Virus record (IMG/VR): IMGVR_UViG_3300042319_001788
Span: 1-26,085 of that record
DNA: 26,085 bases
Source: a virus
Strand: one strand, 5' to 3'
The number at the start of each line of letters is the position of its first letter. Positions within the stretch are counted from its first letter, which is position 1. Of the stretch, positions 3,623 to 25,283 are shown piece after piece. The notes below the pieces were generated by a model. The model did no database searches. It saw only the letters and a list, made by a program, of their open reading frames with translations, and was not told the origin of the DNA. A program made the position numbers and the translations under genes.

Positions 3623-3652
3623 ACGTCATTACAATTTTCTAGGAGATTAAAA

Positions 3653-4093: not shown

Positions 4094-4104
4094 TCAGCCG
4101 TTTG

Positions 4105-4134
4105 GGTGCCGGGGCAACCCGGCACCATTTTCTG
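4105..4134 (+). terminator. Perfect 9-bp hairpin with GCAA tetraloop and short T-run
   Basis: GGTGCCGGG (4105-4113), loop GCAA (4114-4117), CCCGGCACC (4118-4126), then ATTTTCT. The GCAA loop is a member of the very stable GNRA tetraloop class. The hairpin begins eleven bases after the upstream stop codon. It is a good intrinsic terminator candidate, though the T-run is short, so partial termination or a processing site is equally possible. Confidence 0.7.
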
Positions 4135-4145
4135 AGGGGTGAAAA

Positions 4146-4397: not shown

Positions 4398-4414
4398 AGC
4401 GCTAGGGGGAACAT

Positions 4415-5331: not shown

Positions 5332-5341
5332 GGGACACACC

Positions 5342-7077: not shown

Positions 7078-7097
7078 TTTACAAATAGGGGACATAC

Positions 7098-7448: not shown

Positions 7449-7460
7449 GACGCCTCCCGC

Positions 7461-8347: not shown

Positions 8348-8386
8348 CAACACAATTGCAGGTTTAATTTTTTATAGGAGCAGATC

Positions 8387-9596: not shown

Positions 9597-9599
9597 CGA

Positions 9600-12694: not shown

Positions 12695-13560
12695 AGGCCG
12701 TTTCTGAGGCGTTTAAGCAGCATCTCGCAAGCGAGACCACAACGCTCGCGACATGCTGGCTGGCCACTTTGCAAAACGGTACGGTCTACGGGTTCACGTC
12801 GCACTCGTCCGACATTGTTTTTGGCGGTCGCACATACGCGGCAGCGACAGGCATAACGCCGTCCGCGATTGCATCAAACGCGGATTTGGCAGTTGACAAT
12901 CTCGACGTTGACGGCATGCTTGACGCCTCGGTCATTACCGAGGCAGACATCGCCGCCGGCTTGTGGGACTACGCGGCAATAGAGATTTTTATGGTCAATT
13001 GGTCTGACCTATCGATGGGGCAGATCAAAATGCGCTCGGGCAGATTGGGCGAGGTGAAAACAGGGCGAGTGGCCTACACCGCAGAGCTGCGCGGTTTGGC
13101 TCAAAACCTACAGCAGGTCGTAGGTGAGCTGTACTCACCGACGTGCAGGGCAGCGCTTGGCGATGCCCGGTGCAAGGTCTCGTTGGCCGCGTACACACAC
13201 AGCGGCACGGTCGCCAGCGTCCTGACTCAAGAAAGTTTTTCGGCGGCCCTCACGCTGCCGGATGACTACTGCACAAGCGGGCGCGTGACGTTTTTGAGCG
13301 GCCAAAACAGCGGACTGGCCATGGAGGTCATTGCATACTCGCGTGGCGTTTTTACTCTCGCGCTGCCGATGCCGTACACAATCGCAGTGGGTGACGCTTT
13401 TACAGCGGTCGCCGGATGTCAAAAACAATTTTTACGCGATTGTGTCGGAAAATTTGCCAATGCGATCAATTTCCGCGGCGAGCCATACCTGCCCGGCAAT
13501 GATGTGATGACGGCGAGCGGGTACAACAACGCGGCCCCGAGCGAGGAGCCGCAGACGTGA
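12691..13560 (+). CDS. Tail hub protein, DUF2163 / BR0599 family, probable Fe-S binding
   Basis: 289 residues from TTG 12691, which overlaps the distal tail stop; no nearer ATG fits. Family features include a start with FKQHLASETTTLATCWLATL, the VDGMLDASVITEADIAAGLW segment, and the C-terminal NFRGEPYLPGNDVM motif. Four conserved-looking cysteines lie at residues 152 and 161 (TCRAALGDARC) and 243 and 251 (GCQKQFLRDC). This spacing suits a metal or iron-sulfur cluster, as reported for the lambda hub-region protein gpL and, as I recall, the GTA hub. The protein would form the trimeric hub plugging the tube end. The stop overlaps the peptidase GTG start. Confidence 0.9.
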   Translation: MKAVSEAFKQHLASETTTLATCWLATLQNGTVYGFTSHSSDIVFGGRTYAAATGITPSAIASNADLAVDNLDVDGMLDASVITEADIAAGLWDYAAIEIFMVNWSDLSMGQIKMRSGRLGEVKTGRVAYTAELRGLAQNLQQVVGELYSPTCRAALGDARCKVSLAAYTHSGTVASVLTQESFSAALTLPDDYCTSGRVTFLSGQNSGLAMEVIAYSRGVFTLALPMPYTIAVGDAFTAVAGCQKQFLRDCVGKFANAINFRGEPYLPGNDVMTASGYNNAAPSEEPQT

Positions 13561-13988
13561 TTAAACGCGCTCAGGTGGCCGCAGAGGCTAGGACGTGGCT
13601 TGGTACACCATGGCAGCATCAAGCGCGACTCAAAGGCGTTGGGTGCGATTGTGTGGGCCTTGTTATTGGCGTTGCTCGCGACCTTGGCGTTGTAGATGCG
13701 GATTTTAATGTTGATGGGTACAAGCGCATACCCGACGGCGTCACGTTGATGACGCAGTGCCACGCGCACATGGCGCGGATTGACGCGGCATCTATTGATG
13801 TAGGCGACGTTTTGTTGATGCGGTTTAAGGGGGAGCCGCAGCATCTCGCCATTGTTGGCGACTACGCGCATGGCGGCCTGTCAATAATCCACGCCTACGC
13901 GCTCTCGCGCGCGGTGGTCGAGCACGCTCTCAGCGATCAGTGGCGGCAGCACGTTGTTTGTGCCTATAAATTGCCGGGAGTCGCATAA
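13557..13988 (+). CDS. Tail-associated NlpC/P60 cysteine peptidase (GTA gp14-like)
   Basis: 143 residues from GTG 13557, overlapping the hub stop (GTGA). The NlpC/P60 catalytic motif is present: Cys32 in GCDCVGLVIGVA, a histidine at 96 in QHLAIVGD, and a third polar residue His112 in IIHAYAL. The LGTPWQHQARLKGVGCDC start is typical of the phage tail form. The enzyme cleaves cell-wall peptide cross-links locally when the tail contacts the periplasm, helping DNA delivery. It is not the bulk lysis enzyme, because it lies in the tail-tip cluster. There is no signal peptide, in keeping with a virion part. The stop overlaps the next ATG (TAATG). Confidence 0.92.
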   Translation: MIKRAQVAAEARTWLGTPWQHQARLKGVGCDCVGLVIGVARDLGVVDADFNVDGYKRIPDGVTLMTQCHAHMARIDAASIDVGDVLLMRFKGEPQHLAIVGDYAHGGLSIIHAYALSRAVVEHALSDQWRQHVVCAYKLPGVA

Positions 13989-16900
13989 TGGCGCGGCTGG
14001 TATTAGGGGCGGTTGGTGCTGGCATTGGCGGGTTTATGGGCGGCTCGATTGGCGCATCTATTGGCTGGTCGGTTGGCGCAGCTCTAGGCGGTCTAGTTGA
14101 CCCTCCTGACGCGATTAAACAACAGGGCCCTCGATTAGGCGACCTAAAACTACAAGCGTCAAGCTACGGCGCACCAATCCCCGTCGTCTACGGCGCGGTG
14201 CGGGTAGCTGGCAACGTGATATGGGCATCGGAGATACGCGAGACGGCCACGACGACGAGCGAGGGCGGCAAGGGCGGCCCGGAGGTAGAGACGACGACCT
14301 ACACCTATGCGGTCGATGTGGCAATCAGCATAGGAGAGGGCGAGCTGGTCGGCGTTAGTCGTATGTGGGCCAATAACCAACTGGTCGCCAATTTTTCGAC
14401 GACTAATACGGACATTGCGGAGTCCGTCGTTTTTTATTCGGGGACAGAGACGCAGCTACCCGACCCAACAATGGAGGCCGCCTTAGGTGTTGGTCGCGTC
14501 CCCGCTTATAGGGGACAGGCCTATATTGTGTTTGAAAATTTACAGCTCGCGGATTACGGCAACCGAGTCCCAAATTTTGAGTTTGAGATAGGCGCTGGCG
14601 AGTTGACCGGGGGGGGGCCGCCGATCATCGTCGACACGGGTTTGCCAGCCATCGACTACCAAAATTTTAATACCATCGACGCATACGATTGTTTGTGGGT
14701 GTCGCTGCCAGACGCAGAGACTCTCGTCCGGTATGACCTAAAAACAAAAAAAACGCTGGTCACACGCAGCAACGTGTCCACGATCCCTCAGCAGGGCGGC
14801 ACGCAGTTGCTGCGGCCGTACGCGATCAACGATGCCGGTGTATTGTTTTGTGACCGCCAGTATTATACTGGCGCGTGCTACCTGCTACCCAGCGGCGGCG
14901 AGGTGGTTGCAACAACGACCGCGTGGATTCCACCGACTCGTGGAGAGTTTGGGCAAATTCTTGCTCCCGGTTTTTATATAACCGAACCCCCGGCAAACAC
15001 AGGGGTTTTATCGTTTAGCTCAGGCGGCAGCGGCAATCTAGGCATTTTACAGGCCAATAAAAAAGTGCTTGCCGTTGGATCCGGCTATTTTGGCTACGGC
15101 GTGCGATTGTATGAGGATGGGGTTCAGGACACAAAATGGGAGTTTATTAGCTCGTATTTCCCGGCCCCCGACCCGCTGGGCAGCAGCGTCCGCTACGGCA
15201 ACACCACAGTCCCCAACCCGCAGCCGTTTGGTAATTTTACCTATGGCCTACTCCCACCACACTGGCACAACGGGATCGTATTTAATCAGGTTTCGCCTTT
15301 TATCAATGCCCCTCAGTCTGGCCGGAGAATAAAAATTGAGGGTGTCGAGACGGTCGCGCTGATCCGGTCAACAACTAATGACGGGTATCGCACCGGCCTC
15401 TATAATCACGTTGTTTTGGCTACCGTATCCGACGGTGGGTTGGACCCACTACTCACAAACATGGACGTCGCCGCGTGCAATGCGGTGCAGGTCGATCCCG
15501 ATGGCACGATCTACCTAATTTCGTCATCCGCTGCAAAAATTTATAAATATGTCCAGCAATATCCGGACGACCCTGCGAAGCAGCGCGAATTTATTTTGAC
15601 GGCGACCCTAGATATCGCATCCCTCCCGTCGTTTAATTCGGCGAGTGCTCGCATTCCGTCAAGCGGTGGAATAATGGTGGCGTTCTATGGCGCGCAGTAC
15701 TCTGCCCGTGTAGCGTTTATTAATCTCAAAACGATGACGATTGTCAAAACCGCGCCGACGCCGAGTTTGTTCCAGCCGGCGATGCTGGACAACCACAAAT
15801 CCAGTCAAATCTTGGCTTGTATTGACGCATTTAGCCAGCGGATTTATACAATTGACTACAGACGAGCGACCAATTCGGGGGGTGGCGTTTTCATTCCCTC
15901 CAATTTTAGTGTGCCACTGGCTGATATCGTTGAGGATTTGTGCGAGCGATCAAAATTGAGCGCGTCACAAATCGACGTGACGGCGCTGGAGCCGTACACC
16001 GTGCGAGGGTATGCGCTCTCGCGTCAGGCATCGGCGCGGGCGAACATAGCTCAGTTGCAACAAGCATATTTTTTTGACGCGGTTGAGTCCGACCACAAAA
16101 TCAAATTTGTCCCGCGCACGCAAAGGTCTGTCGTGACGATTGATGTTGATGAGTTAGGCGCGTATGCCGCAGGCGGCCAGCCTAGTGAGTTGCTGGAGGT
16201 GCGGCGCGGGCAGGAGGTAGAGCTACCGTCGCGGGTTAGTGTGACGTACCCTGATCAAAATTTTGACTACCAACTAAAAACACAAAACGCACAACGATTG
16301 TTGACCGCATCGGTGGTCGAGTCCGCCGAGGCATTGGCGGTGGTGCTATCAGCAGACGAGGCACGCAGCGTCGCCAATCGCGCCTTGTATTTTGCCCACA
16401 TCGAGCGCACCAGATTTGCATTTGGGACAAGCAAAAAATACGTATACCTAGAGCCTACCGACGTGGTGACGATCAACGGCCCTAACAAATCGTACATCGC
16501 TCGACTACAAACCGCCTCAACATCCGGCGGTCTCATACAATGGGAGGCGATTGCAGCAACTGGCTCGGGAGCGGCGATTGGCGCGCCCACGATTATTAGT
16601 CCACTCAATGCCGGCGCGGTGGCAGGGGTGGCGTTTGCCTACACAATTTTGGCGACCAACACGCCAACATCGTACAGCGCGACCGGACTGCCTGCTGGCC
16701 TAACCCTAAACACGTCAACAGGCGCGATTACAGGCACCGTGGCGGCATCCGGGACGGCAATGGCTACTATCACTGCCACCAACGCCTCCGGGAGCGGCAA
16801 ATCGCCGTTAACGATTACCACGACGGCATCCGCCGTCGCACCAACAATTACGAGCGCAGCGACCATCAACGCCAAGGTCGGGGCGCTGGTTAATGCGTTT

Positions 16901-18067
16901 TTGAGTGCGACAGGGACATCGCCTATTGTGTGGGCTGTCACGAGTGGCCAACTGCCGGCAGGTCTGTCCCTCAATGCCTCAACTGGTGCCATTACAGGGA
17001 CGCCAACAACTGAGGGGACGGCATCATTTACCGTCCGGGCGGCTAACGGGACTGCGCCTAACGCGACATTGGCAATGACAGCCATTGTGCAGGCCTCAGG
17101 TCAGTCCCCTATTGATGTCGTTGTGCCCGGCGCGACCTACGCACAATATCTCGATATTCCCCTCCTACGCGACAAAGACGACGGCGCGGGATTTTATGTC
17201 GCACTAACGGGCGCGACCACCCCGTGGTCAGGGGCGACCGTGCTGCAATCGGTGGACGGCCTGTCATACACGTCGCTTGCTTCGGCGTTTTCGAGCGCGG
17301 CCTCAGGGTTTGCCACGACCCAGCTAGGCGCTGGATTTAACACCAACATGATTGACGAGGCGAGCTCGGTCACGGTCTACATCAATGGCGGCGGCACGCT
17401 CGCATCAATCACGACCGACGAGCTGCTCAATGGCGGCAACGCATGCGCCATTGGCGGCGAGATTTTGTGTTTTGGCACTGCCACCCTTGTGGCGGCTCAA
17501 ACATACCGCCTAAGCCGCTTTATACGCGGTTTGTTTGGCACTGAGGCAGCACAGGCTACGCATCCCGGCGGCGATGCGTTTGTGATGCTCAATGGCGGCG
17601 GCGTGGTGCGCGTTGCTGGCACGACCGCGCAGATTGGTCAGCCGCTGCAATATAAATCCATCACCAACGGCCAAAAATTAAACACGGCGGCGGCAGTACC
17701 GTTTACAAATTTTGCCGCCGGACTCAAACCGCTGTCTCCGGTTTTGGTCAACGCGAGCAAACAACCTAATGGGGATTTTGTAATTCGGTGGACGCGGCGC
17801 GGGCGCATCGACGCGGCTTGGCGGTCTACAGTTGATGTGCCACTAGGTGAGACGGTCGAGGAGTACGACCTAGAGCTATACACGTCTGGTGTGCCAAACA
17901 TTTTGAGGCGCACGGTGCGAGTCACAGCACCGACGTACACATACACACTGGCACAGCAGGTGACAGATGCAGGCAGCGGCATCGCGGCAGGCGCGCTTAG
18001 TCATCGCGTCTATCAAATATCGAGTGTGGTCGGACGCGGCTTTGGCTCGCCTATTGCAAACACGTAA
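13988..18067 (+). CDS. Tail-tip / host-specificity protein (GTA gp15 / lambda J-like) with propeller-like insert and two Ig-like repeats
   Basis: 1359 residues. Residues 1-~50 are Gly/Ala-rich and hydrophobic (GAGIGGFMGGSIGASIGWSV), then GAPIPVVYGAVRVAGNVIWA begins the conserved tail-tip domain, broken at ~208. Residues ~208-640 are a repeat-like beta region (CLWVSLPDAETLVRYDLKTK, later AIPVDPDGT-like turns such as AVQVDPDGTIYLIS) resembling a beta-propeller. The conserved part resumes at VPLADIVEDLCERSKLSASQ (~641) and continues to ~865. Two putative Ig domains follow at ~868-950 and ~951-1038, each with LPAGL-LN-STGAITGT. The conserved C-terminal region starts YAQYLDIPLLRDKDDGAGFY. It likely forms the receptor-contacting tip. 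The extra domains are inferred to extend host binding. Confidence 0.88.
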   Translation: MARLVLGAVGAGIGGFMGGSIGASIGWSVGAALGGLVDPPDAIKQQGPRLGDLKLQASSYGAPIPVVYGAVRVAGNVIWASEIRETATTTSEGGKGGPEVETTTYTYAVDVAISIGEGELVGVSRMWANNQLVANFSTTNTDIAESVVFYSGTETQLPDPTMEAALGVGRVPAYRGQAYIVFENLQLADYGNRVPNFEFEIGAGELTGGGPPIIVDTGLPAIDYQNFNTIDAYDCLWVSLPDAETLVRYDLKTKKTLVTRSNVSTIPQQGGTQLLRPYAINDAGVLFCDRQYYTGACYLLPSGGEVVATTTAWIPPTRGEFGQILAPGFYITEPPANTGVLSFSSGGSGNLGILQANKKVLAVGSGYFGYGVRLYEDGVQDTKWEFISSYFPAPDPLGSSVRYGNTTVPNPQPFGNFTYGLLPPHWHNGIVFNQVSPFINAPQSGRRIKIEGVETVALIRSTTNDGYRTGLYNHVVLATVSDGGLDPLLTNMDVAACNAVQVDPDGTIYLISSSAAKIYKYVQQYPDDPAKQREFILTATLDIASLPSFNSASARIPSSGGIMVAFYGAQYSARVAFINLKTMTIVKTAPTPSLFQPAMLDNHKSSQILACIDAFSQRIYTIDYRRATNSGGGVFIPSNFSVPLADIVEDLCERSKLSASQIDVTALEPYTVRGYALSRQASARANIAQLQQAYFFDAVESDHKIKFVPRTQRSVVTIDVDELGAYAAGGQPSELLEVRRGQEVELPSRVSVTYPDQNFDYQLKTQNAQRLLTASVVESAEALAVVLSADEARSVANRALYFAHIERTRFAFGTSKKYVYLEPTDVVTINGPNKSYIARLQTASTSGGLIQWEAIAATGSGAAIGAPTIISPLNAGAVAGVAFAYTILATNTPTSYSATGLPAGLTLNTSTGAITGTVAASGTAMATITATNASGSGKSPLTITTTASAVAPTITSAATINAKVGALVNAFLSATGTSPIVWAVTSGQLPAGLSLNASTGAITGTPTTEGTASFTVRAANGTAPNATLAMTAIVQASGQSPIDVVVPGATYAQYLDIPLLRDKDDGAGFYVALTGATTPWSGATVLQSVDGLSYTSLASAFSSAASGFATTQLGAGFNTNMIDEASSVTVYINGGGTLASITTDELLNGGNACAIGGEILCFGTATLVAAQTYRLSRFIRGLFGTEAAQATHPGGDAFVMLNGGGVVRVAGTTAQIGQPLQYKSITNGQKLNTAAAVPFTNFAAGLKPLSPVLVNASKQPNGDFVIRWTRRGRIDAAWRSTVDVPLGETVEEYDLELYTSGVPNILRRTVRVTAPTYTYTLAQQVTDAGSGIAAGALSHRVYQISSVVGRGFGSPIANT
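16588..17100 (+). repeat. Two tandem Ig-like (He_PIG type) repeats inside the tail-tip gene
   Basis: The first repeat contains LPAGLTLNTSTGAITGTVAA and the second LPAGLSLNASTGAITGTPTT, each about 83-87 residues. They are inserted between IQWEAIAATGSG and the DIPLLRDKDDGAGFYVA region, which are normally close together in this family. Such domains are often displayed on phage surfaces. Confidence 0.8.
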
Positions 18068-18078: not shown

Positions 18079-18729
18079 ATGGCAGACAGTACAAGCAACA
18101 TCCCGCAGATGTCGAGTTTCCAAGCCGCGAAGGAGGTCACGTTTAACTCCGTGGTCGATGCGCTCTCGCCTGCGTCAATTTTTGGGCGCAATTTTGCAAC
18201 AAGCTCCGGTCTCGTGTGGGGATTTTTGGGAGGACGGATTGAGGTCGATGCGGTGCCTACGCTCATAGCTAATGGCACTCTCACGCTCACGGCATCGTCC
18301 ACCTGTTATATCGAGGCGACGAGGGCGGGCGTGGTATCGTCCAACACGACGGCATTCACACCGGGACGAATCCCTCTCTATGTTGTTGTGACTGGCTCGG
18401 CCAGCGTCACGAGCTGGCAGGACGTGCGGCAGCCGGGCGCGGCGGTGTGCAACCGCGCCGTCGTCAACATCAGCAACGCCAACGTGACTCTCACAGCGGC
18501 GCAGGCGCGGTGCCAAATCATCGAGGTCACAGGCACGCTCAACTCGTCCCATCGCTCAATTATTGTGCCGCTCGCGTTGCAGCAATGGACAATTTTTGCA
18601 AACACGACCGGGGGTGTTGGCGTCAACGTCATCGGCGCGACTGGCACCGGCGTCACGGTGGCAGACGGTCATCGCGCCATCGTTTATAGTGACGGGACAA
18701 ATGTTGTTCGCGCAACGGCTGATGTATAG
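18079..18729 (+). CDS. Tail fibre-like protein following the tail-tip gene
   Basis: 216 residues, with AAAGGAC about eight bases before ATG 18079. The N-terminal part (FQAAKEVTFNSVVDALSPAS ... SGLVWGFLGGRIEVD) and the repeated beta segments (TLTLTASSTCYIEATRAGVV, then FTPGRIPLYVVVTGSASVTS) match a protein type found after the tail-tip gene in many proteobacterial phages. The C-terminal half is a different beta domain (NVTLTAAQARCQIIEVTGTL ... FANTTGGVGVNVIGATGTGV). I read it as a small fibre or tip accessory attached to the tail-tip protein. The exact role is not known. A T-rich run without a clear hairpin follows its stop. Confidence 0.7.
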   Translation: MADSTSNIPQMSSFQAAKEVTFNSVVDALSPASIFGRNFATSSGLVWGFLGGRIEVDAVPTLIANGTLTLTASSTCYIEATRAGVVSSNTTAFTPGRIPLYVVVTGSASVTSWQDVRQPGAAVCNRAVVNISNANVTLTAAQARCQIIEVTGTLNSSHRSIIVPLALQQWTIFANTTGGVGVNVIGATGTGVTVADGHRAIVYSDGTNVVRATADV

Positions 18730-18766
18730 TTATAATTGTTTGAGTTTTTTTTAATAGGGGACACAC

Positions 18767-18964
18767 ATGGACGGATTTTATTTAATTGCAGTTTTGTTAA
18801 TCACGATCATTATTTTGGGCGTGATTTTTTTTGCTGATCGCGAAGACAAGAAAACTACGCTCAAAGGTGGGCCCGGCGAGGGCCCCGGCGGTCATCCGTT
18901 AAGCGGTCGTCAAACTGACATTACCCCCGGCGGCCCCGGCGAAGGCCCCGGCGGTCATCCTTGA
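18767..18964 (+). CDS. Small membrane-anchored protein with two GGPGEGPGGHP repeats
   Basis: 65 residues, preceded by AATAGGGGACACACATG. Residues ~4-22 form one membrane helix (FYLIAVLLITIIILGVIFFA), then a short charged stretch (DREDKKTT). The tail consists of two copies of GGPGEGPGGHP (residues 34-44 and 55-65) separated by a ten-residue linker. The second copy ends the protein. I do not recognise a family. The protein would be anchored in the inner membrane with a flexible Gly/Pro tail. It is the first gene of the lysis region and overlaps the next start, so a holin accessory or antiholin role is possible but not shown. Confidence 0.6.
   Translation: MDGFYLIAVLLITIIILGVIFFADREDKKTTLKGGPGEGPGGHPLSGRQTDITPGGPGEGPGGHP
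18866..18960 (+). repeat. Two near-identical GC-rich direct repeats coding GGPGEGPGGHP
   Basis: Copy one at about 18866-18897 and copy two at about 18929-18960 both end CCCCGGCGGTCATCC, at a 63-base period. They differ at few bases, suggesting recent duplication or conserved use. Confidence 0.75.
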
Positions 18965-19356
18965 AAAGTGTCGCGGCCGCGCTTGCTATAGGCGCGGTGT
19001 TTTTTAATTTCTCGGCCGAGTGGGCGCTGCCGGGATTTAGCCCATACGCAACTTGGTACATCCAGCAGAGTATTTGGGTAGCCGTTTTGTGTGTGGTGGT
19101 GCGTTTGCTCATTGACTCATACCCGCGATCCGCCGTCTGGGCGCTCGCGTCAACGGCGTGCTTTGTAGGCGCGTCTGAGGGGCTACAAAACGCGACATGT
19201 AGGCTGCTCGTCGACAATGGCAGCAGCATACCGCGTGGCACGACCGTATGCGATTATGTGACTGGCCTACCCGTACAGGCAACGTCGGTCACGCTGTATT
19301 TATTTTTATTTTTGTGGAGCGTCTACAAATGCAGACCGAACCGCAGGATTTTATAA
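18961..19356 (+). CDS. Membrane protein of the lysis region, function unknown
   Basis: 131 residues from TTG 18961, which overlaps the upstream stop (TTGA). About four hydrophobic segments are visible: VAAALAIGAVFFNFSAEWAL, SIWVAVLCVVVRLLI, AVWALASTACFVGASEG, and TSVTLYLFLFLWSVYKC. Two cysteines in a loop (ATCRLLVDNG ... TTVCDYVTG) could form a disulfide if periplasmic. Proteins with a similar ASEGLQNATCR-type segment occur near holins in other phages, as far as I recall, but I know no defined function. The next gene begins inside its last ten codons. Holin or holin partner is the most likely role. Confidence 0.55.
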   Translation: MKSVAAALAIGAVFFNFSAEWALPGFSPYATWYIQQSIWVAVLCVVVRLLIDSYPRSAVWALASTACFVGASEGLQNATCRLLVDNGSSIPRGTTVCDYVTGLPVQATSVTLYLFLFLWSVYKCRPNRRIL

Positions 19357-19715
19357 CCGTCGTCGTCGCCATATTGGCGCTGGTGACGAGCAAGGAGCTA
19401 GCCGCGCTAGTCGGCCCATACGCCGGGATCGCGGCCTGCGCGTGCGCTGGTGCAGCCGTGTCTTTGTCAGGCAATGACGAGTCGATGACGGTGCCTCAGG
19501 CTCTTGGCTATGTGTTGTTGCGCGTACTGCTCGCGACCATCCTCACGGTAGGACTCGCCGAGCTATTGCAGCACGTCATGCCGGCGATTAAGCCGCGGTA
19601 TTCGCTCATTCCGCTGGCGTTCGGTATCGGCTGGATCCGGGACTACTCTAGCCTGCGCTCTTGGGTCGGCGACACCATACAAACCATAATCTCGCGCCGG
19701 GTGGATAGACCATGA
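19329..19715 (+). CDS. Probable holin-like membrane protein
   Basis: 128 residues from ATG 19329, with GTGGAG at 19314-19319. The start lies 28 bases inside the upstream gene, and an upstream in-frame extension to 19248 is not needed. Three hydrophobic regions appear: ITVVVAILALVTSKELAALV with GIAACACAGAAVSLS, then ALGYVLLRVLLATILTVGLA, then SLIPLAFGIGWI. The C-terminus is short and basic (IISRRVDRP). Small size, two to four membrane segments, a charged tail and placement before Rz/Rz1 fit a holin. The start of the next gene overlaps its stop as ATGA. No family name is assigned. Confidence 0.55.
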   Translation: MQTEPQDFITVVVAILALVTSKELAALVGPYAGIAACACAGAAVSLSGNDESMTVPQALGYVLLRVLLATILTVGLAELLQHVMPAIKPRYSLIPLAFGIGWIRDYSSLRSWVGDTIQTIISRRVDRP

Positions 19716-20008
19716 CTCAGGAACTGCTCACTGCGATCAATTTTATTATATGCTCCCTCGGCGGATTTTGTTGTATTTGCCGACTGCGGATTATGGGCGC
19801 GTCAACAAAAAAACCAATCCGATTTCAATATGCAATTTGGTTTGCCGTGTTTTTTTATTCGGCCTTCAGTTGGACGTATGGCGACCACCCAACAGGGATC
19901 CAAATCGTGCTAGGCGCTGCTGTGCTCGCGCATATTTTGCTCGGGTTTAGCGCGTGGCGCGACGGCCTGCCAAATTATGCAAAAAAAGAGGAGGCGAGAT
20001 GGAATTAG
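19712..20008 (+). CDS. Small three-helix membrane protein, holin candidate
   Basis: 98 residues, overlapping the upstream stop. Three membrane segments are visible: LLTAINFIICSLGGFCCICR, IWFAVFFYSAFSWTYG and GIQIVLGAAVLAHILLGFSA, with a basic loop (RIMGASTKKPIRF) and a charged C-terminus (KKEEARWN). This pattern resembles putative three-helix phage holins (Phage_holin_3 type), recalled and not searched. The stretch overlaps the start of the DUF5675 gene by ten bases. With the gene at 19329 it may make a holin/antiholin pair; which is which cannot be told from sequence. Confidence 0.6.
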   Translation: MTQELLTAINFIICSLGGFCCICRLRIMGASTKKPIRFQYAIWFAVFFYSAFSWTYGDHPTGIQIVLGAAVLAHILLGFSAWRDGLPNYAKKEEARWN

Positions 20009-20457
20009 AGCTAAAACGCCGCTCGTCATCGGAGACCTGCACCGTCGGAGAGTTGTTTGTTGATGGCAACTTTGAGTGCTACATACTAGAGGACGTGGTG
20101 CGAGAGATTAAGGGCGTTTCAGTCGCCGCCTGGAAAACGCACGGCGCGACGGCCATACCTGTAGGCACCTATCAAATCACCCTCACGCAGTCCCCGCGTT
20201 TTAAGCGCGTCTTGCCATTGCTCAATCGCGTCCCCGGGTTTAGTGGCGTCCGCATTCACCCAGGCAACGACGCCGATGACACTGAGGGGTGTTTGCTACC
20301 GGGCCTGACCGTTGACGACGACGGCGAGGGTGTCGCGTATTCTCGCGCCGCGTTTGATCGATTGTTTGACAAACTCACGCGAGCAGACGCCATAGGTCAA
20401 CCGATGTTTATCTCGATCGAAAACAGGCACACGACCGACGACGAGGCTGTCGCGTGA
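19999..20457 (+). CDS. DUF5675 family protein, candidate lysis enzyme
   Basis: 152 residues from ATG 19999, chosen because GAGGAGGCGAG lies just upstream; the in-frame ATG at 19954 is inside the previous gene. The conserved core is clear: IPVGTYQITLTQSPRF, PLLNRVPGFSGVRIHPGN (His87) and DDTEGCLLPGL (Cys98). The spaced His and Gly-Cys motif recalls the L,D-transpeptidase active site, but a catalytic role for DUF5675 is, to my knowledge, not proven. It occupies the place where an endolysin is expected, between holin-like genes and Rz, and no other endolysin is visible nearby. There is no signal peptide. It overlaps the Rz start (GTGA). Confidence 0.8.
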   Translation: MELELKRRSSSETCTVGELFVDGNFECYILEDVVREIKGVSVAAWKTHGATAIPVGTYQITLTQSPRFKRVLPLLNRVPGFSGVRIHPGNDADDTEGCLLPGLTVDDDGEGVAYSRAAFDRLFDKLTRADAIGQPMFISIENRHTTDDEAVA

Positions 20458-21023
20458 TCTCCGCGATCCGCATGTGGCTCGATGTTGTGCTGTCGTTTTG
20501 GCGCATCGCTGCGGCATTGGCCGCCGTCGCCGCGCTCGCTGGTGCGGTGTGGTGGGTGCGCGATACTGGAGTGCAGGCAGAGCGCGCCCGTTGGCAAATC
20601 AAAATGAGCAAATCCGACGCGCACTGGCAGGCTCAATTAGATGCGGCCAATGCGTCAAACCGCTTGAGCGAGCGGCGCAGCGCCCAGGCAATTGCAAACG
20701 TGTCAACCCGTTACCAACGCGAGATTAAAAATGTCGATGCTAAAAAAAATTATGATCGTAGCAGTGTGCAGCGCGGCAGCCTCCGGCTGTTCGACCGTCC
20801 CGATGACGCCACTGAGCAAAACAATTGTCGAGCGTTGCCCGCAACCAGTGACCCTGCCGCCTCCACCCTCGGACGTGATGGTAGAGAGGCAACCGAACTT
20901 TCGCAAGCGACTGCTGGAAATCTTTTTGACCTCGTTAACGACGCCGACGCCGTCGTCGCACAACTTTCAGCCGCGCAGTCCGTGATTTTGGAATATCAAA
21001 AATTATGTGGCGCTGGCCTGTGA
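20454..21023 (+). CDS. Inner-membrane spanin subunit, Rz-like
   Basis: 189 residues from GTG 20454, overlapping the DUF5675 stop. One N-terminal membrane helix (residues ~17-35, IAAALAAVAALAGAVWWVRD) is followed by a charged helical periplasmic domain (SDAHWQAQLDAANASNRLSE and RYQREIKNVDAKKNY) and a C-terminal helix (ATAGNLFDLVNDADAVVAQL). This is the i-spanin layout. It acts with the Rz1 lipoprotein to fuse inner and outer membranes in the last step of lysis. Rz1 is coded inside it in the +1-shifted frame. The stop is immediately adjacent to the stop of a leftward gene, so the late operon ends here. Confidence 0.85.
   Translation: MISAIRMWLDVVLSFWRIAAALAAVAALAGAVWWVRDTGVQAERARWQIKMSKSDAHWQAQLDAANASNRLSERRSAQAIANVSTRYQREIKNVDAKKNYDRSSVQRGSLRLFDRPDDATEQNNCRALPATSDPAASTLGRDGREATELSQATAGNLFDLVNDADAVVAQLSAAQSVILEYQKLCGAGL
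20731..20985 (+). CDS. Outer-membrane spanin lipoprotein, Rz1-like, embedded in Rz
   Basis: 84 residues from ATG 20731 (a second ATG at 20737 is an alternative start; the open frame extends to 20692 without a ribosome site). A basic start (MSMLKK), hydrophobic stretch (IMIVAVCSAAASGC) and lipobox ASG-Cys20 give a lipoprotein signal. A proline-rich part follows (VTLPPPPSD), then a basic amphipathic end. The gene is wholly inside Rz in another frame, the embedded Rz/Rz1 arrangement known from lambda. The lipoprotein is anchored in the outer membrane and binds the Rz periplasmic domain. Confidence 0.85.
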   Translation: MSMLKKIMIVAVCSAAASGCSTVPMTPLSKTIVERCPQPVTLPPPPSDVMVERQPNFRKRLLEIFLTSLTTPTPSSHNFQPRSP

Positions 21024-21036
21024 TCAGTCATCACAG
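21018..21036. repeat. Inverted repeat covering both stop codons at a tail-to-tail gene junction
   Basis: CTGTGAT (21018-21024), loop CAGTC, ATCACAG (21030-21036). The stops of Rz (TGA 21021-21023) and the leftward gene (TCA on the top strand, 21024-21026) lie inside this 19-base element. No T-run follows on either strand, so it is not a standard terminator. Confidence 0.6.
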
Positions 21037-21263
21037 ACCGCCTTCCGCGCTTTAAGCCGCCATTGCTGGCAGCGCGTAGGCGCTGCGCTTATCGCCACCA
21101 TCGCGCCTCGTGCATAGGCCGATTCGGCCCGCCTGTCTGCGGCTGCGTCAATCTCCGGGACAACAAAAAAATAAAACGTCATTGAGGCTATAGCCGCGCC
21201 AAGCGCGCAAAAAATCGTCAAAAGCGCGAGCGCAAAAATTGTGCGTTTATTGTGGTTTTTCAC
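21024..21263 (-). CDS. Small membrane protein, last gene of leftward operon
   Basis: 79 residues from a GTG start at 21261-21263 that overlaps the upstream stop (TTGTGA), with GAGG about ten bases before. A short basic N-terminus (KNHNKR) precedes one long hydrophobic segment, TIFALALLTIFCALGAAIAS and MTFYFFVV, giving one membrane helix. The remaining part is Ala- and Arg-rich (AAADRRAESAYARGAMVAIS). No family is recognised. It lies at the 3' end of an early operon, just against the late operon, so a superinfection or membrane role is conceivable but unsupported. Confidence 0.5.
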   Translation of the reverse strand: MKNHNKRTIFALALLTIFCALGAAIASMTFYFFVVPEIDAAADRRAESAYARGAMVAISAAPTRCQQWRLKARKAVCDD

Positions 21264-21466
21264 AATTTCTGTAACCTCATTTTGACAATTTTTATTTTTT
21301 TGTTTGCGATTTTGGTTTTGATTAGACCGATCTCGCGCTCAGTGTCAAAAATTTTTGTTTGCACTCGCCGCATCTCGCTCGCGTAGTCGGCTAGCAGGCG
21401 CGCATACGATGCGCGGTGGCACTGTTCGCGCCATTGCAAAAACGTCAAATATATTTTTGTAATCAT
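21260..21466 (-). CDS. Small coiled-coil protein with LTFLQWREQ motif
   Basis: 68 residues. The ATG at 21464-21466 overlaps the stop of the Gp157-like gene (AAATGA), implying coupled translation. The N-terminus reads ITKIYLTFLQWREQCHRASY and is followed by a basic, heptad-like helix (MRRVQTKIFDTEREIGLIKT then KIANKKIKIVKMRLQKL). No family is recognised. The LTFL-WREQ block recurs in the small protein at 22598, including at DNA level. It may be a nucleic-acid or protein binding adaptor of the early operon, on charge grounds only. Confidence 0.55.
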   Translation of the reverse strand: MITKIYLTFLQWREQCHRASYARLLADYASEMRRVQTKIFDTEREIGLIKTKIANKKIKIVKMRLQKL

Positions 21467-21957
21467 TTAATTTCCAATCGCGTCCCGGTTTGCAAACGCG
21501 CTCCCGGCACAAAATCGCCGGACTTTAGTCTGTCCCCGATTAGTTTTTTGTCAGGCACCGAAACGACTGGCGGGGTGCGTAAAAATTCGGGAGGAATAAG
21601 GGCTGCGTTGTCGACAACAACACTAGCCGGATTGTGTTTGATGGTCAGCGTCAAAAAAGGGCTGTCGATTTTTGTAATCCCGCACGCCTCCATGTTGGTC
21701 TTTAGGTATTCAGTAATTGATTCGATTTTTTGTTCTAACCTTTTTCGCCGCTCGGCCATTTGACCTTCCGCCTCGCGGATAGCCTTCGCAGTCGCCTCTA
21801 TGTTTTTGACAAACAAAGCGACGTTTTTTGATTTTTCCTCAATTGGGAATTGCAGTCCCTCCAGCGTGTCCCGTATTGTGTCTGCGTCTAAATCGGAGTT
21901 GTCAAGCACGGCCAGAGCCGTGCGGTATTCGGTCGTAAGTTCGTAAAGTGCTGTCAT
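21463..21957 (-). CDS. Siphovirus Gp157-like protein
   Basis: 164 residues. The family pattern is visible: an N-terminal ALYELTTEYRTALAVL, then DTIRDTLEGLQFPIEEKSKN, a long helical section with AEGQMAERRKRLEQKIESIT, the conserved YLKTNMEACGITKIDSPFLT then LTIKHNPASVVVDNAALIPP, and a C-terminal DRLKSGDFVPGARLQT. Gp157 proteins lie in early phage operons next to single-strand binding and recombination proteins. The original name came from Streptococcus phages, where a resistance effect was reported; the molecular role is not settled to my knowledge. Here it directly follows the SSB-like gene, the usual neighbour. Confidence 0.87.
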   Translation of the reverse strand: MTALYELTTEYRTALAVLDNSDLDADTIRDTLEGLQFPIEEKSKNVALFVKNIEATAKAIREAEGQMAERRKRLEQKIESITEYLKTNMEACGITKIDSPFLTLTIKHNPASVVVDNAALIPPEFLRTPPVVSVPDKKLIGDRLKSGDFVPGARLQTGTRLEIK

Positions 21958-21967
21958 AATTTATGAC

Positions 21968-22594
21968 TCAAAATGGGATGTCGTCGTCATCAAAATCGCC
22001 CCCGATTGGCTGGACGCCATGCCCTATATCCTGCCGCGCTGGAGGGGCTTGCAACGCCAAAAATTCTGGCGTCGGCGTAATCAAATTTTTGTAGTAGTCG
22101 GAGAGCGCATTAAATGACGCCAGAACAAACTCGTCGCGCTCAAGCGAGAAATAAAACGACGGATTGATTTGCTCGGGTACCGGCGCACCTTTTGGCAACG
22201 CCATTAGCGCGGTGATGCGGATTTTGTTTTTGTCGTTTGGCGTCAACTGTAGCATGCATGGCTTGCCCAAAATGTTTTTGGCGTCAAACCCTGCCAGCTC
22301 TGTTTGTGCAAACTCGCGACCGCGCCAGTTGACTAAATCGCGTCTCAAATTAGCCTTTTCGGCCAAGCTCGCGGTGTAGAATTTTGAGACAAAAAACGGC
22401 ATTCCGGCGCGCTCCCCATCCGGCATCAGCTCGTTTGGTAGCTCAAAACCAATTACAACCTGACGCCTAAAAATTTTCGCGCCCTTGTACTCGCCCGGCT
22501 GTGTGCCAATGTCGATCAGCCGCACGCATCGCGCAACGTGCGTACCTGCTGGTGCCTGCGCAAAATCGCTGCCGCCTGTATCAGTCCATTTCAT
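21968..22594 (-). CDS. Single-stranded DNA binding-like protein with acidic DDDDIPF tail
   Basis: 208 residues, with GAGGAT just upstream of ATG 22592-22594. The first ~150 residues look like a beta-rich nucleic-acid binding domain (AGTHVARCVRLIDIGTQ, EYKGAKIFRRQVVIGFELP, FVSKFYTASLAEKANLRRDL). The C-terminus is low-complexity and ends GGDFDDDDIPF, the acidic tip typical of SSB proteins that recruit repair and replication partners. Family-level naming is not certain; phage proteins of this type are found beside Gp157. Inferred role: protects single strands during phage replication or annealing. The upstream gene supplies its ribosome site within its last codons. Confidence 0.75.
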   Translation of the reverse strand: MKWTDTGGSDFAQAPAGTHVARCVRLIDIGTQPGEYKGAKIFRRQVVIGFELPNELMPDGERAGMPFFVSKFYTASLAEKANLRRDLVNWRGREFAQTELAGFDAKNILGKPCMLQLTPNDKNKIRITALMALPKGAPVPEQINPSFYFSLERDEFVLASFNALSDYYKNLITPTPEFLALQAPPARQDIGHGVQPIGGDFDDDDIPF

Positions 22595-22597
22595 TTT

Positions 22598-22792
22598 TTA
22601 ATCCTCATAATAATTTTGCTGCAATTTGTCAATTAAAATTTCTTCTCGCGCCGTTTTCCCGCGCGGATTAAAAATCTCACGCGGTTCGCGCCAGCCGGGC
22701 ACGTCGTGACCGCAGTCGTCTCGCGCCGGCGGTTGCTCGCGCCAATCCAAAAATGTCAAATCATACGATGATTGCTTAATTGTCAAGATCAT
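22598..22792 (-). CDS. Small protein with LTFLDWREQ motif
   Basis: 64 residues from ATG 22790-22792. This ATG directly touches a GGGAGGAGG sequence, leaving no spacer. The TTG six bases further in would be ideally spaced (start MTIKQSSYD), so the true start is uncertain. The sequence carries SSYDLTFLDWREQPPARDDC and a basic/acidic end (REEILIDKLQQNYYED). No family is recognised. The LTFLDWREQ block is shared with the protein at 21260. The start overlaps the end of the upstream small gene, so the two are probably coupled. Confidence 0.5.
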   Translation of the reverse strand: MILTIKQSSYDLTFLDWREQPPARDDCGHDVPGWREPREIFNPRGKTAREEILIDKLQQNYYED

Positions 22793-22961
22793 CCTCCTCC
22801 CACAAATCACGAACAGCGGCACAGTACACGCTTAAATACTCGGCGACCTCGTATCGGATGTCGAGCGCGCCGGCTCTGATTGACTCGCGGATTACGTCAA
22901 CGGTCCGTCCGTGGAGCGCGTTGATTTGATCAAAAAATTTAACACGGTCGTGCGATGTCAT
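22776..22961 (-). CDS. Small helical protein, first gene of the leftward operon
   Basis: 61 residues from ATG 22959-22961, with GGGAGG and a nine-base spacer upstream. The open frame continues to 23189, but the predicted leftward promoter lies at 23167-23196, so ATG 23187 is not transcribed and the extra sequence looks non-coding. The protein is helix-prone and charged (DRVKFFDQINALHGRTVDVI, then RYEVAEYLSVYCAAVRDLWE), with an acidic end EEDDLDN. No family is recognised. As the first product of the early leftward transcript it would be made early in infection. Confidence 0.5.
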   Translation of the reverse strand: MTSHDRVKFFDQINALHGRTVDVIRESIRAGALDIRYEVAEYLSVYCAAVRDLWEEDDLDN

Positions 22962-23166
22962 TTGCCGCTGCCTCCCTGTAAAAAAAATTTTGTGCTGTGC
23001 AATTTTGTTGCTTGTTGCTGGTCGCGCTTGCTTTTTCCGCAGATTTGCCAGATCGGTGGCCCGTAGGGTTTCGCTCACGCCGCACCGTCGCGCTGTCCCC
23101 GCGCTCGCTCGCCTATTGGCCACACTCCTGCGGGGAGCCGATGCAATACTGTACATCGACAACAAC

Positions 23167-23196
23167 ACTATAACGGATTGTGCTGCCATTTGTCAA
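23167..23196 (-). promoter_or_regulatory. Leftward early promoter
   Basis: On the minus strand TTGACA (23191-23196) and TATAGT (23167-23172) are separated by 18 bases. This matches the sigma-70 consensus closely. Transcription would start near 23160 and read the SSB-like/Gp157 operon after a ~200-base leader. Confidence 0.75.
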
Positions 23197-23229
23197 CAAT
23201 TTTTTATTATGTTTTTCAAGGTTGACAAA
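23189..23229. promoter_or_regulatory. Symmetric operator candidate spanning both -35 boxes
   Basis: TTTGTCAAC (23189-23197) and GTTGACAAA (23221-23229) are exact inverted copies, each containing a -35 box. A third related element, GTCAAC, lies downstream of the rightward -10 at about 23254-23259. Spacing of the two arms would let one regulator affect both promoters. The adjacent Cro-like protein is the obvious candidate. Confidence 0.5.
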
Positions 23230-23250
23230 ATCGCAGCGCGAGCGTAAAAT
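23222..23250 (+). promoter_or_regulatory. Rightward early promoter
   Basis: TTGACA (23222-23227) and TAAAAT (23245-23250) with a 17-base spacer, a near-consensus sigma-70 promoter. It would drive the Cro-like gene at 23282 with a short leader. Confidence 0.8.
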
Positions 23251-23281
23251 ACGGTCAACACAATAACCTGAGCAAAAAAAA

Positions 23282-23575
23282 ATGGTGCCTATCATAAAAT
23301 TAGATAAAAATTGTCCCGAGATCGACCTGATCATCCACGAGCATTTTTACGGCAAAACCCGCCTGCTACAGGAGGCGCTCGGCGTCACTCGCGCCTGCAT
23401 CTCAATCTGGCGTAGGCGCGGCATCCCGGCGATGAGGCGGTACCACATTGACGCTGTGATCCGGGAGCGTTCCGAGGGACCGAAGGGCGAGAGCGATGGC
23501 AAGAGCGAGGGCGATGGCCAAAGCAAAAAAAAACCGCTCCCCTCTGTTGAGGACATAATCGGAATTTATTTATAA
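23282..23575 (+). CDS. Cro/YdaS-like helix-turn-helix regulator
   Basis: 97 residues. Residues ~24-45 form a helix-turn-helix (GKTRLLQEALGVTRACISIW) followed by RRRGIPAMRRYHIDAVI, the pattern of Cro-type regulators in which IP-xRxxxI follows the recognition helix. The C-terminal third (GPKGESDGKSEGDGQSKKK) is hydrophilic and probably flexible, and the end (VEDIIGIYL) may be a short strand. The gene sits directly behind a strong promoter and beside a divergent one, as lambda cro does. No CI-type repressor gene is seen on the other side, which is unusual. Ribosome site is weak (GAGC, then an A-run). Confidence 0.78.
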   Translation: MVPIIKLDKNCPEIDLIIHEHFYGKTRLLQEALGVTRACISIWRRRGIPAMRRYHIDAVIRERSEGPKGESDGKSEGDGQSKKKPLPSVEDIIGIYL

Positions 23576-23588
23576 ATCGACACACGCG

Positions 23589-23660
23589 CTGCGGCATACC
23601 GTGGGATTGTCAGTCCGCTGGGAGTCGGTAGTACCCTGCCGCAGGCGTGGAGCGGCAGGG
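23589..23660 (+). promoter_or_regulatory. Alternative RNA stems (possible attenuator-like switch)
   Basis: CTGCGGCA (23589-23596) can pair with TGCCGCAG (23637-23644). Inside it TACCG (23597-23601) pairs with CGGTA (23626-23630), and GGATT (23604-23608) with AGTCC (23612-23616). The same 23637-23642 bases can instead pair within CCCTGCCGC (23634-23642) and GCGGCAGGG (23652-23660), a perfect 9-bp hairpin. The two folds exclude each other. No T-run follows the second hairpin. Confidence 0.55.
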
Positions 23661-23661
23661 C

Positions 23662-23690
23662 TTGACAATGTTGTAAAAATATGGTTTAAT
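23662..23690 (+). promoter_or_regulatory. Second strong rightward promoter
   Basis: TTGACA (23662-23667) and TTTAAT (23685-23690), spacer 17. It begins one base after a 9-bp hairpin and its transcript would start near 23697, just before the structured RNA. Confidence 0.8.
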
Positions 23691-23696
23691 TTTTTA

Positions 23697-23799
23697 GTTG
23701 ATTGCACAGTCATCAAACGATTTTTAGGCGAGAGTTCAGGGGCTTAGGCCCTGCCCGGCGTTGTGCACCGGGCCTCTCACCTAAAGGTCGTTTTTTTTT
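23697..23799 (+). ncRNA. Candidate small structured RNA with intrinsic terminator
   Basis: The proposed transcript starts ~7 bases after a near-consensus promoter and ends in T9 (23791-23799). Its closing stem is AAACGA (23715-23720), TT, TTTAGG (23723-23728), C, GAGAG (23730-23734), paired with CTCTC (23774-23778), A, CCTAAA (23780-23785), GG, TCGTTT (23788-23793). This gives 17 Watson-Crick pairs, two U-G pairs and one C-A mismatch. The top is a three-way junction with hairpins CAGGG/CCCTG (23737-23741 with 23749-23753) and CCCGG/CCGGG (23754-23758 with 23768-23772). It resembles a terminated sRNA or a regulated leader; no known RNA family is recognised. Confidence 0.65.
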
Positions 23800-24002
23800 G
23801 TCTCAAAATCCCTCAGCAACAAATCAGCACGAGGGAACCATGCGCGGGCGTGGGCTGGGCGCGAGCAATCGCGGGGCTGCAAAGCCGGGGCCCGCAGGGG
23901 CGCTGTCCGACGTCGACTCAGGGTCAGGTGCCTGCTCTCTCTCCCTTGGGGGGTAGGGGGGGCATGGGAACACGAACCGCGCAATCTAGGGTCAGGCAGT
24001 TA

Positions 24003-24048
24003 GGACAAACAAACAAACAAGCAAACAGGACAAACAAACAATCAAACA
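24003..24048 (+). repeat. CAAA-rich tandem repeat leader
   Basis: GGACAAACAAACAA occurs at 24003-24016 and again at 24028-24041, with more ACAAAC-type units between and after. The tract lacks G-C pairing potential and ends about 12 bases before ATG 24061. It could be an unstructured translation leader, or iterons of a replication origin, since replication genes follow. Confidence 0.6.
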
Positions 24049-24060
24049 TGAGGCAAGACT

Positions 24061-24339
24061 ATGAGCAAAAAAACATTGATAGGAGATTGGACGCCAGATG
24101 CCAAACTATTGGCGTGGTGCCACGCGCACGGGTACGACGCGGATGCACATTACGATTTTTTTAGGGATTATTGTTTGGCTAATGGTGCGAAATATGCGAG
24201 TTTTGACGCGGCATTCCGCAATTGCTGCCGCGCTGATTGGGGCGGAGTCCGAAAAAATCAAACGCTCGGCCAAAATCAGCAAACAAAACAGGATCGGCGA
24301 GCCAGTACAATCGCAGGTCTGGTCGGTGGCGAGATATGA
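24061..24339 (+). CDS. Small replication-type protein
   Basis: 92 residues from ATG 24061 with GAGG at about 24049-24052. The main block WTPDAKLLAWCHAHGYDADA then FFRDYCLANGAKYASFDAAF-RNCCRADW (around residues 10-60) has the F-DY-x(n)-FDAAFRNWxR pattern found at the C-terminus of phage replication initiators of the O/DnaT type. Here it stands alone without an initiator domain. The C-terminal 30 residues are polar (NQTLGQNQQTKQDRR). It precedes and overlaps (ATGA) a P-like gene, as O precedes P in lambda, so a role in primosome assembly is inferred. An origin may lie in the repeat-rich region just upstream. Confidence 0.6.
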   Translation: MSKKTLIGDWTPDAKLLAWCHAHGYDADAHYDFFRDYCLANGAKYASFDAAFRNCCRADWGGVRKNQTLGQNQQTKQDRRASTIAGLVGGEI

Positions 24340-24863
24340 GCGTCAACACCAGACTAGACGCGGCGACCGCGACCAAAACCGTTGAGCGCTTATTTGCTCG
24401 CATGGCCGCGCTGTACGGCTCTAAATTTGCCGATCAATGGGCGGGCATCAACCCCGTTGATGTCAAAAAATGCTGGTCGGAGGAAATCGCTGCCTATCCG
24501 ATGCGGCAAATCGCCGCTGCCGTCAACGCGCTCACGACCAAAAATTGGCCGCCGACCCTCCCAGAATTTTTGGAACTAATCGAAGATCAGCGCCCTGCGC
24601 TTAATACGGCGGCCTACAAGCCATCAAAATCCGTTGACGCGGTAGACACTCAAGCTCCTGACGTTTTGGCCGCCAAGGCGCGTTGTATGGCGTCTATGGC
24701 GCGTGGTTTCACCGCCCCAACGCCCGCTTGGGCGTATAGAGCAAAACGCCGCTGGCTTGATGGTGAGGTCAGGCACTCGCCAGACGTGACGGCCATGATC
24801 AATCGCGTCATTGAGCGAGACCGAGGTATGCACGACCCATTTTTACAAATTGAGCGGAGCTAA
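24336..24863 (+). CDS. Replication protein P-like, helicase-loader candidate
   Basis: 175 residues from ATG 24336, which overlaps the upstream stop; an in-frame extension to 24237 lies inside the previous gene. Features are VERLFARMAALYGSKFADQW, then SEEIAAYPMRQIAAAVNALT, and the characteristic WPPTLPEFLELIEDQ. The C-terminal part is helical with AKARCMASMARGF and RYRAKRRWLD-type basic segments. These fit phage replication protein P, which delivers host DnaB helicase to the origin. Weak similarity limits certainty. Neighbours (a small replication-type protein and a nuclease) fit an early replication operon. Confidence 0.68.
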   Translation: MSVNTRLDAATATKTVERLFARMAALYGSKFADQWAGINPVDVKKCWSEEIAAYPMRQIAAAVNALTTKNWPPTLPEFLELIEDQRPALNTAAYKPSKSVDAVDTQAPDVLAAKARCMASMARGFTAPTPAWAYRAKRRWLDGEVRHSPDVTAMINRVIERDRGMHDPFLQIERS

Positions 24864-24867
24864 AAAA

Positions 24868-25053
24868 ATGAAAATTGTGTTGGAAATTGACAACGATTGC
24901 ATCCCTACAATTAACGGGCGCGACGTCGGCCCAATTATTTTTGAGGCAATCCGGAGCAACCCGAGGTGGTGGTTTGACTCTGCCGATGTTGTGCAGATCG
25001 AGGGTACGTTTGGCCGGTACACGGAGGATCGGTACGAGTTGGGGCTGCGATGA
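24868..25053 (+). CDS. Small hypothetical protein
   Basis: 61 residues from ATG 24868, five bases after the upstream stop. The start MKIVLEIDNDCIPTINGRDV and the WWFDSADVVQIEGTFGRY segment suggest a compact alpha/beta fold. No family is recognised and no catalytic motif is seen. The stop overlaps the next start as ATGA. Upstream, GGAGC lies about nine bases away. It is accepted as real because of this spacing and coupling inside the operon. Confidence 0.5.
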   Translation: MKIVLEIDNDCIPTINGRDVGPIIFEAIRSNPRWWFDSADVVQIEGTFGRYTEDRYELGLR

Positions 25054-25283
25054 AAGCGGCGATTAAAAAACTGGTCGAGCAGGGCATTACCGACTCCGCC
25101 GTCATCGCCTGCACTCTCCAAATTAAACGCACACGAGTAGAGACCGCGCTCGCGTGGATTGCGCGGGACGCCAATCGCACAAAACAAAACGCGACAAAAA
25201 AATCAACGCGATCGCAGAGGCAAATTTGTTGGTCGACCATGCCGCTGGTAGTCCGAGAGGAGCGCGGCCATGCCGTCGATTAA
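25050..25283 (+). CDS. Small basic protein, possible helix-turn-helix
   Basis: 77 residues, coupled to the previous gene (ATGA overlap). Residues ~1-40 (IKKLVEQGITDSAVIACTLQ then KRTRVETALAWIA) have the helix-turn-helix look of an ITDSAVIA-x(n)-RVETALAW DNA-binding unit. The remainder is strongly basic (RTKQNATKKSTRSQRQ) with a short end. It overlaps the VRR-NUC gene by 14 bases in another frame. DNA binding is inferred; the partner is unknown. Confidence 0.5.
   Translation: MKAAIKKLVEQGITDSAVIACTLQIKRTRVETALAWIARDANRTKQNATKKSTRSQRQICWSTMPLVVREERGHAVD

What the first reader, a model, noticed from the sequence alone, without database searches (positions are those of the whole stretch)
19999..21023. 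Lysis region without a recognised endolysin; DUF5675 protein as candidate
Membrane proteins and Rz/Rz1 bracket a single soluble gene, a DUF5675 protein with an IHPGN...DTEGC pattern like L,D-transpeptidase active sites. No lysozyme, amidase or transglycosylase is visible in the window. If it is the lysis enzyme, it would assign a catalytic role to this family.
Basis: partly seen in the sequence, partly recalled or inferred. Interest (0 to 1): 0.6.

Follow-up and report, generated by a model that had tools for sequence, protein, structure and literature searches.

The report
Phage lysis cassette with unusual enzyme
This phage appears to burst its host using a small protein of officially unknown function (DUF5675) in the slot where a cell-wall-cutting enzyme normally sits; comparison with many other phages supports that role, but I found no experiment showing that the protein cuts the wall.

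Summary
In a 26 kb viral contig, membrane proteins (18767-20008), a soluble DUF5675 protein (19999-20457), Rz (20454-21023) and an embedded Rz1 lipoprotein (20731-20985) form a lysis cassette. No Pfam endolysin matches the contig, or the rest of the genome as supplied by an overlapping relative. Across lineages DUF5675 lies beside spanin and holin genes. Of 53 DUF5675 contigs (24 kb or more), none has any of five common endolysin families, against 13 of 27 control contigs lacking DUF5675 (p=6e-8, records not independent). In the isolated Cellulophaga phage phi39:1, DUF5675 is the only candidate recognised. His87, Cys98, Gly89 and Gly97 are invariant in 135 homologues. The L,D-transpeptidase link is suggestive only: one confident model hits LD-carboxypeptidase Pgp2 (probability 0.98, TM 0.45), a second does not, and profile comparison is not significant. 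The idea is not wholly new: crAss-like phage homologues are deposited as 'L,D-carboxypeptidase/transpeptidase' near a holin. Pfam and PHROGs still call the family unknown; I found no experiment. Best reading: a holin-released Cys-His peptidoglycan peptidase acting as the endolysin. Two prophage loci appear to carry it beside another wall hydrolase, so it may be auxiliary in some.

The parts
18767..18964 (+). small protein with one membrane segment and a GGPGEGPGGHP repeat; possible lysis-cassette member
   Evidence: ORF and sequence; no family match
18961..19356 (+). membrane protein, start codon uncertain
   Evidence: ORF; no family match; hydrophobic segments by eye
19329..19715 (+). membrane protein, holin candidate (ATG at 19329)
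   Evidence: ORF; no family match; holin role inferred from position and hydrophobic segments
19712..20008 (+). membrane protein, two hydrophobic segments by scan, holin or antiholin candidate
   Evidence: hydropathy scan; no PHROG match
19999..20457 (+). DUF5675 protein, 152 aa, candidate endolysin
   Evidence: PF18925 E=3e-32; invariant residues in 135 homologues; confident model
20257..20259 (+). codon of invariant His87
20290..20292 (+). codon of invariant Cys98
20454..21023 (+). Rz, inner-membrane spanin, 189 aa
   Evidence: PF03245 E=1.1e-7; phrog_2466 E=1.5e-12
20731..20985 (+). Rz1-type lipoprotein, 84 aa, embedded out of frame in Rz
   Evidence: phrog_3198 E=3e-4 on the longer ORF; lipobox ORF
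13557..13988 (+). NlpC/P60-like tail protein; the only other wall-hydrolase-like gene, judged virion-associated
   Evidence: PF00877 just below cut-off; phrog_329 tail E=1e-12

Best explanation
DUF5675 is this phage's endolysin. It is made in the cytoplasm without an evident signal peptide, is released to the wall when the membrane proteins upstream form the holin lesion, attacks peptidoglycan, and the Rz/Rz1 spanin then disrupts the outer membrane. Chemically it is most likely a Cys98/His87 peptidase distantly like LD-carboxypeptidases and L,D-transpeptidases, hydrolysing the mDAP-D-Ala bond of peptide stems; cutting that bond in the donor stem of a 4-3 cross-link would open the link. Shown: the gene order, the invariant residues and the absence of recognised endolysins. 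Inferred: wall cleavage, the bond cut, and holin dependence.
For: Lysis cassette with Rz/Rz1. Spanin families commonest downstream, holin families among the commonest upstream, across lineages. Embedded Rz1 signature downstream in 10/110 loci against 10/1274 background ORFs, p=6e-7. 0/53 DUF5675 contigs against 13/27 controls carry any of five endolysin families, p=6e-8. No Pfam endolysin in the relative's stretch standing in for the missing region, in the P22-like relative sharing the cassette, or in the scanned part of isolated phage phi39:1. All 10 assessable Rz relatives keep DUF5675 next to Rz. H87 and C98 invariant in 135 sequences. First model hits LD-carboxypeptidase Pgp2; motif order collinear with YkuD proteins.
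Against: No activity data. Second model does not hit Pgp2; profile comparison with YkuD not significant. Stem trimming alone would not open cross-links. Two prophage loci appear to have DUF5675 beside another wall hydrolase, and crAss001 has a separate annotated peptidoglycan hydrolase. Control contigs are not independent and few endolysin families were searched.
Confidence: 0.58

Rival explanations
1. DUF5675 is a peptidoglycan peptidase but an auxiliary one: it trims stems or detaches outer-membrane lipoprotein from the wall (as some YkuD-family enzymes do, from my own knowledge), while the main cut comes from an unrecognised phage protein or a host autolysin.
For: Pgp2, its nearest structural match, trims stems rather than opening cross-links (abstract). 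Two loci appear to pair it with another hydrolase; crAss001 has Gp89.
Against: No other candidate found in the genome as reconstructed or in phi39:1; 0/53 contigs with five common endolysins.
Confidence: 0.22
2. The NlpC/P60-like tail protein, or another virion protein, doubles as the lysis enzyme and DUF5675 does something else.
For: The NlpC/P60-like gene is the only other wall-hydrolase-like gene.
Against: It lies among tail genes and matches a tail PHROG, far from holin and spanin.
Confidence: 0.06
3. DUF5675 modifies peptidoglycan to exclude other phages or to regulate lysis timing rather than to lyse.
For: L,D-transpeptidase-like enzymes can remodel stems and exchange D-amino acids (PMC9638812).
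Against: Recurrent place between membrane proteins and spanins, and absence of any other endolysin in those contigs.
Confidence: 0.08
4. DUF5675 is not a peptidoglycan enzyme at all and the His/Cys pattern is coincidental.
For: No significant sequence relative in the PDB; second model without a YkuD hit.
Confidence: 0.06

Closest known systems
crAss-like phage Gp30 'L,D-carboxypeptidase/transpeptidase' (crAss001 and relatives)
   Same: Homologous DUF5675 protein, about 38% identical, in a lysis cassette after 'lysis regulatory protein/holin' genes
   Different: Bacteroidales hosts, podovirus-like phages; crAss001 has another annotated peptidoglycan hydrolase (Gp89); function annotated, no experiment found
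Pgp2 LD-carboxypeptidase of Campylobacter jejuni (PDB 6xj6; YkuD family)
   Different: Two-domain secreted cell-shape enzyme; His-Cys spacing 17 against 11; TM 0.45 only, match not reproduced by the second model
Tlde1a, type VI effector of the LD-transpeptidase kind
   Same: Small Cys-based LD-carboxypeptidase and transpeptidase whose activity in the periplasm kills cells (PMC9638812)
   Different: Delivered by a secretion system; motif HX(14-17)[S/T]HGC, which DUF5675 lacks
Lambda-type lysis cassette (S, R, Rz/Rz1)
   Same: Same order: membrane protein, soluble enzyme, Rz with embedded Rz1
   Different: The enzyme slot holds DUF5675 rather than a transglycosylase, lysozyme or amidase

Membership tests
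DUF5675 (PF18925) | Match to the Pfam model above its curated cut-off | tested here: met
   111 bits against 26.7
YkuD L,D-transpeptidase (PF03734) | Match to the YkuD Pfam model | tested here: not met
   Only PF18925 reported at E up to 1
YkuD L,D-transpeptidase (PF03734) | Motif HX(14-17)[S/T]HGC | tested here: not met
   His87 to Cys98 is 11 residues and the motif reads TEGC
YkuD L,D-transpeptidase (PF03734) | Invariant catalytic Cys and His | tested here: met
   H87 and C98 invariant in 135 sequences; that they are catalytic is inferred
YkuD L,D-transpeptidase (PF03734) | YkuD fold | tested here: inconclusive
   Pgp2 hit in one model, none among the 50 best of the other; profile comparison not significant
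YkuD L,D-transpeptidase (PF03734) | LD-carboxypeptidase or transpeptidase activity | not testable with these tools
   Needs muropeptide assay
Holin-dependent phage endolysin (functional class) | Place in a cassette with membrane proteins and spanins | tested here: met
   family-wide
Holin-dependent phage endolysin (functional class) | Cleaves peptidoglycan and is needed for lysis | not testable with these tools
   Needs bench work
Canonical endolysin families (GH24, GH19, GH108, Amidase_2, M15_4) | Match to the family model | tested here: not met
   No match for the window protein
Rz/Rz1 spanin | Rz profile match and an embedded lipoprotein ORF | tested here: met
   PF03245 E=1.1e-7; lipobox ORF 20731-20985

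The most novel reading that the evidence does not exclude
DUF5675 is a widespread, unrecognised class of single-domain endolysin: a Cys-His L,D-peptidase that opens cross-links at the mDAP-D-Ala bond and is the sole wall-cutting lysis enzyme in phages of Proteobacteria and Bacteroidetes, and perhaps in some microviruses.
Probability: 0.4. Interest if true: 0.75.

Novelty: new variant of a known kind. Interest (0 to 1): 0.55.

Why it matters
Phages such as this one have no recognisable endolysin. If DUF5675 fills that gap it gives a function to a Pfam family still called unknown, adds a cleavage chemistry not usual among phage lysins (my own knowledge), and would explain lysis in isolated phages such as phi39:1 and perhaps crAss-like phages. 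It is directly testable with a 152-residue soluble protein and two point mutants.

Tried and rejected
Sequence searches of the PDB with one protein and with two profiles found nothing meaningful. Profile-profile comparison with YkuD was not significant against column-shuffled decoys (9 of 60 reached the observed score). A second structure model, made to see whether the Pgp2 hit recurs, did not show it. A search for relatives in which a canonical endolysin replaces DUF5675 beside the same Rz found none: all 10 assessable loci keep DUF5675, so no displacement could be shown. Portal relatives were too close or too far to serve as controls, so terminase relatives were used. The Muramidase search (PF11860) rang nowhere, controls included, and is uninformative. 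SLT domains occur in 5 of 53 DUF5675 contigs but in open frames of 615-942 aa, which look like virion proteins rather than free endolysins. One pattern scan was mistyped by a codon and is not used. The 480-residue DUF5675 ORF in L098 looks like an assembly or frame artefact next to a capsid gene and is not treated as a fusion.

Full report
What is there. The window is a whole IMG/VR record of 26,085 bases, starting inside the large terminase and ending inside a D12 methylase. It encodes an HK97-type head (portal, S78 protease, capsid) and a long-tail module with DUF2460, hub and tip genes. After the tail fibre gene come four membrane proteins (18767-20008), DUF5675 (19999-20457), Rz (20454-21023) and, embedded in Rz out of frame, an Rz1 lipoprotein (20731-20985). 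The finding's coordinates and residues (His87, Cys98) are correct. The only other wall-hydrolase-like gene is an NlpC/P60-like tail protein at 13557-13988.

Is an endolysin hidden elsewhere? The contig is a fragment, so absence inside it is weak evidence. Contig G006 overlaps both ends: window 1-3285 matches G006 22472-25754, and window 11215-25648 matches G006 1-14392 apart from one variable stretch. The intervening 8 kb of G006 therefore stands in for the missing part, with the caveat that gene content differs at the junction, so it is a relative's sequence and not the window's own. It holds DUF1828, HNH, terminase and other genes but no endolysin by Pfam. G004 and G001 (37 kb) share the lysis and early regions at 92-94% but carry a different structural module; that of G004 is P22-like. 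G004 also shows no endolysin by Pfam; its weak P22 tail-4 match would be a virion protein. So the cassette travels between different phage types and DUF5675 stays the only candidate.

Family-wide context. Searches returned 167 DUF5675 loci in viral and bacterial contigs, and 194 annotated phage records at E up to 1e-3, rising to 226 at 1e-2. In 135 aligned sequences E31, K46, G56, V78, H87, G89, G97 and C98 are invariant. For the downstream gene, the commonest PHROG families are Rz-like spanins; for the upstream gene, holin families are among the commonest. An embedded Rz1-type ORF is found downstream in 10 of 110 non-redundant loci against 10 of 1274 background ORFs (odds ratio 12.6, p=6e-7).

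Endolysin families. I searched five families (GH24, Amidase_2, M15_4, GH19, GH108) in 53 DUF5675 contigs of at least 24 kb and in 27 terminase-related contigs of at least 23 kb verified to lack DUF5675. None of the 53 has any; 13 of the 27 do (p=6e-8). Limits: the records are not independent, several controls look like related prophages with GH19, none is known to be complete, and five families do not cover all endolysins.

Isolated phages. Cellulophaga phi39:1 (28.8 kb, complete) has DUF5675 a few genes after the pectate lyase gene and no other endolysin by Pfam in the 27.6 kb scanned; the first 1.2 kb holds three small unnamed genes and the start of the small terminase gene. Bacteroides VA7, in the 28 kb viewed, Vibrio 1.206.O and Campylobacter CJIE4-4 have no annotated endolysin; Vibrio 13VV501A has only an NlpC/P60 gene annotated in the part viewed. 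The main text of the Vibrio phage Virtus paper mentions neither endolysin nor lysozyme. A 6.4 kb microvirus also carries the gene. In crAss001 the homologue Gp30 is annotated L,D-carboxypeptidase/transpeptidase, shortly after Gp27 'lysis regulatory protein' and Gp28 'lysis regulatory protein/holin', but a separate 'glycoside hydrolase/peptidoglycan hydrolase' Gp89 is annotated elsewhere.

Chemistry. A model from 135 sequences is confident (pLDDT 93.3, pTM 0.87). Its best PDB match is Pgp2, an LD-carboxypeptidase of the YkuD family (E=0.012, probability 0.98, TM 0.45); all other listed matches have probability 0.20 or less. A second model from a Prevotella member (pLDDT 97.9) does not show this match among its 50 best. 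Profile comparison with YkuD proteins is not significant, though the best full-length alignment is collinear over TPxGxY, IHG, xGC and the C-terminal helix and strand. I treat YkuD kinship as plausible, not shown. Pgp2 uses C174, H157 and G158 (PMC8038945); Tlde1a shows that such an enzyme free in the periplasm can kill (PMC9638812).

Counter-evidence. Two prophage loci, L152 (Nitrosomonas) and L188 (Prevotella), appear to have DUF5675 next to another wall hydrolase; the tally shows endolysin PHROGs among upstream neighbours and I assigned them by reading the sequences. DUF5675 may thus be auxiliary in some phages. Trimming stems alone would not open cross-links, so the endolysin reading needs endopeptidase activity, which is untested.

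Novelty. The role was already implied by crAss-like phage annotation, but Pfam and PHROGs list the family as unknown, and only two papers in the library name DUF5675, in gene lists rather than functional work. The contribution here is comparative evidence that the gene occupies the endolysin slot across lineages.

Noticed in passing
window 14767-15177: Stretch inside the large tail-tip gene (13988-18067) that does not align with close relatives G003 and G006 although both flanks do at 92-95%; possibly a variable host-recognition part.
   Followed up: no
window 18646-25913 versus G001 and G004: Lysis and early regions shared at 92-94% with 37 kb contigs whose structural module is different (P22-like in G004), so the whole structural module has been swapped.
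   Followed up: partly
window 5623-7077: Gene between head completion and tail genes with several partial matches (82-92%) elsewhere in G001 and G004, as if duplicated and mobile there.
   Followed up: no
L040 (Dulem virus 260, 3649-4041) and other microvirus records: Small single-stranded DNA microviruses carry a DUF5675 gene, one of only seven in the 6.4 kb genome of Dulem virus 260.
   Followed up: no
BFVD A0A1L7N1E2 (Ralstonia phage RP31): A DUF5675 domain lies within a very large phage protein (1251 residues in the model piece), suggesting use in another context.
   Followed up: no
L187:10001-10483: DUF5675 protein with an added C-terminal membrane segment and an altered motif (IHAGI...TEGC).
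   Followed up: no
L152 and L188, gene directly upstream of DUF5675: DUF5675 appears to sit next to another wall hydrolase (PG-binding plus chitinase-like in L152; an NNPLNIR protein in L188), assigned by eye.
   Followed up: partly
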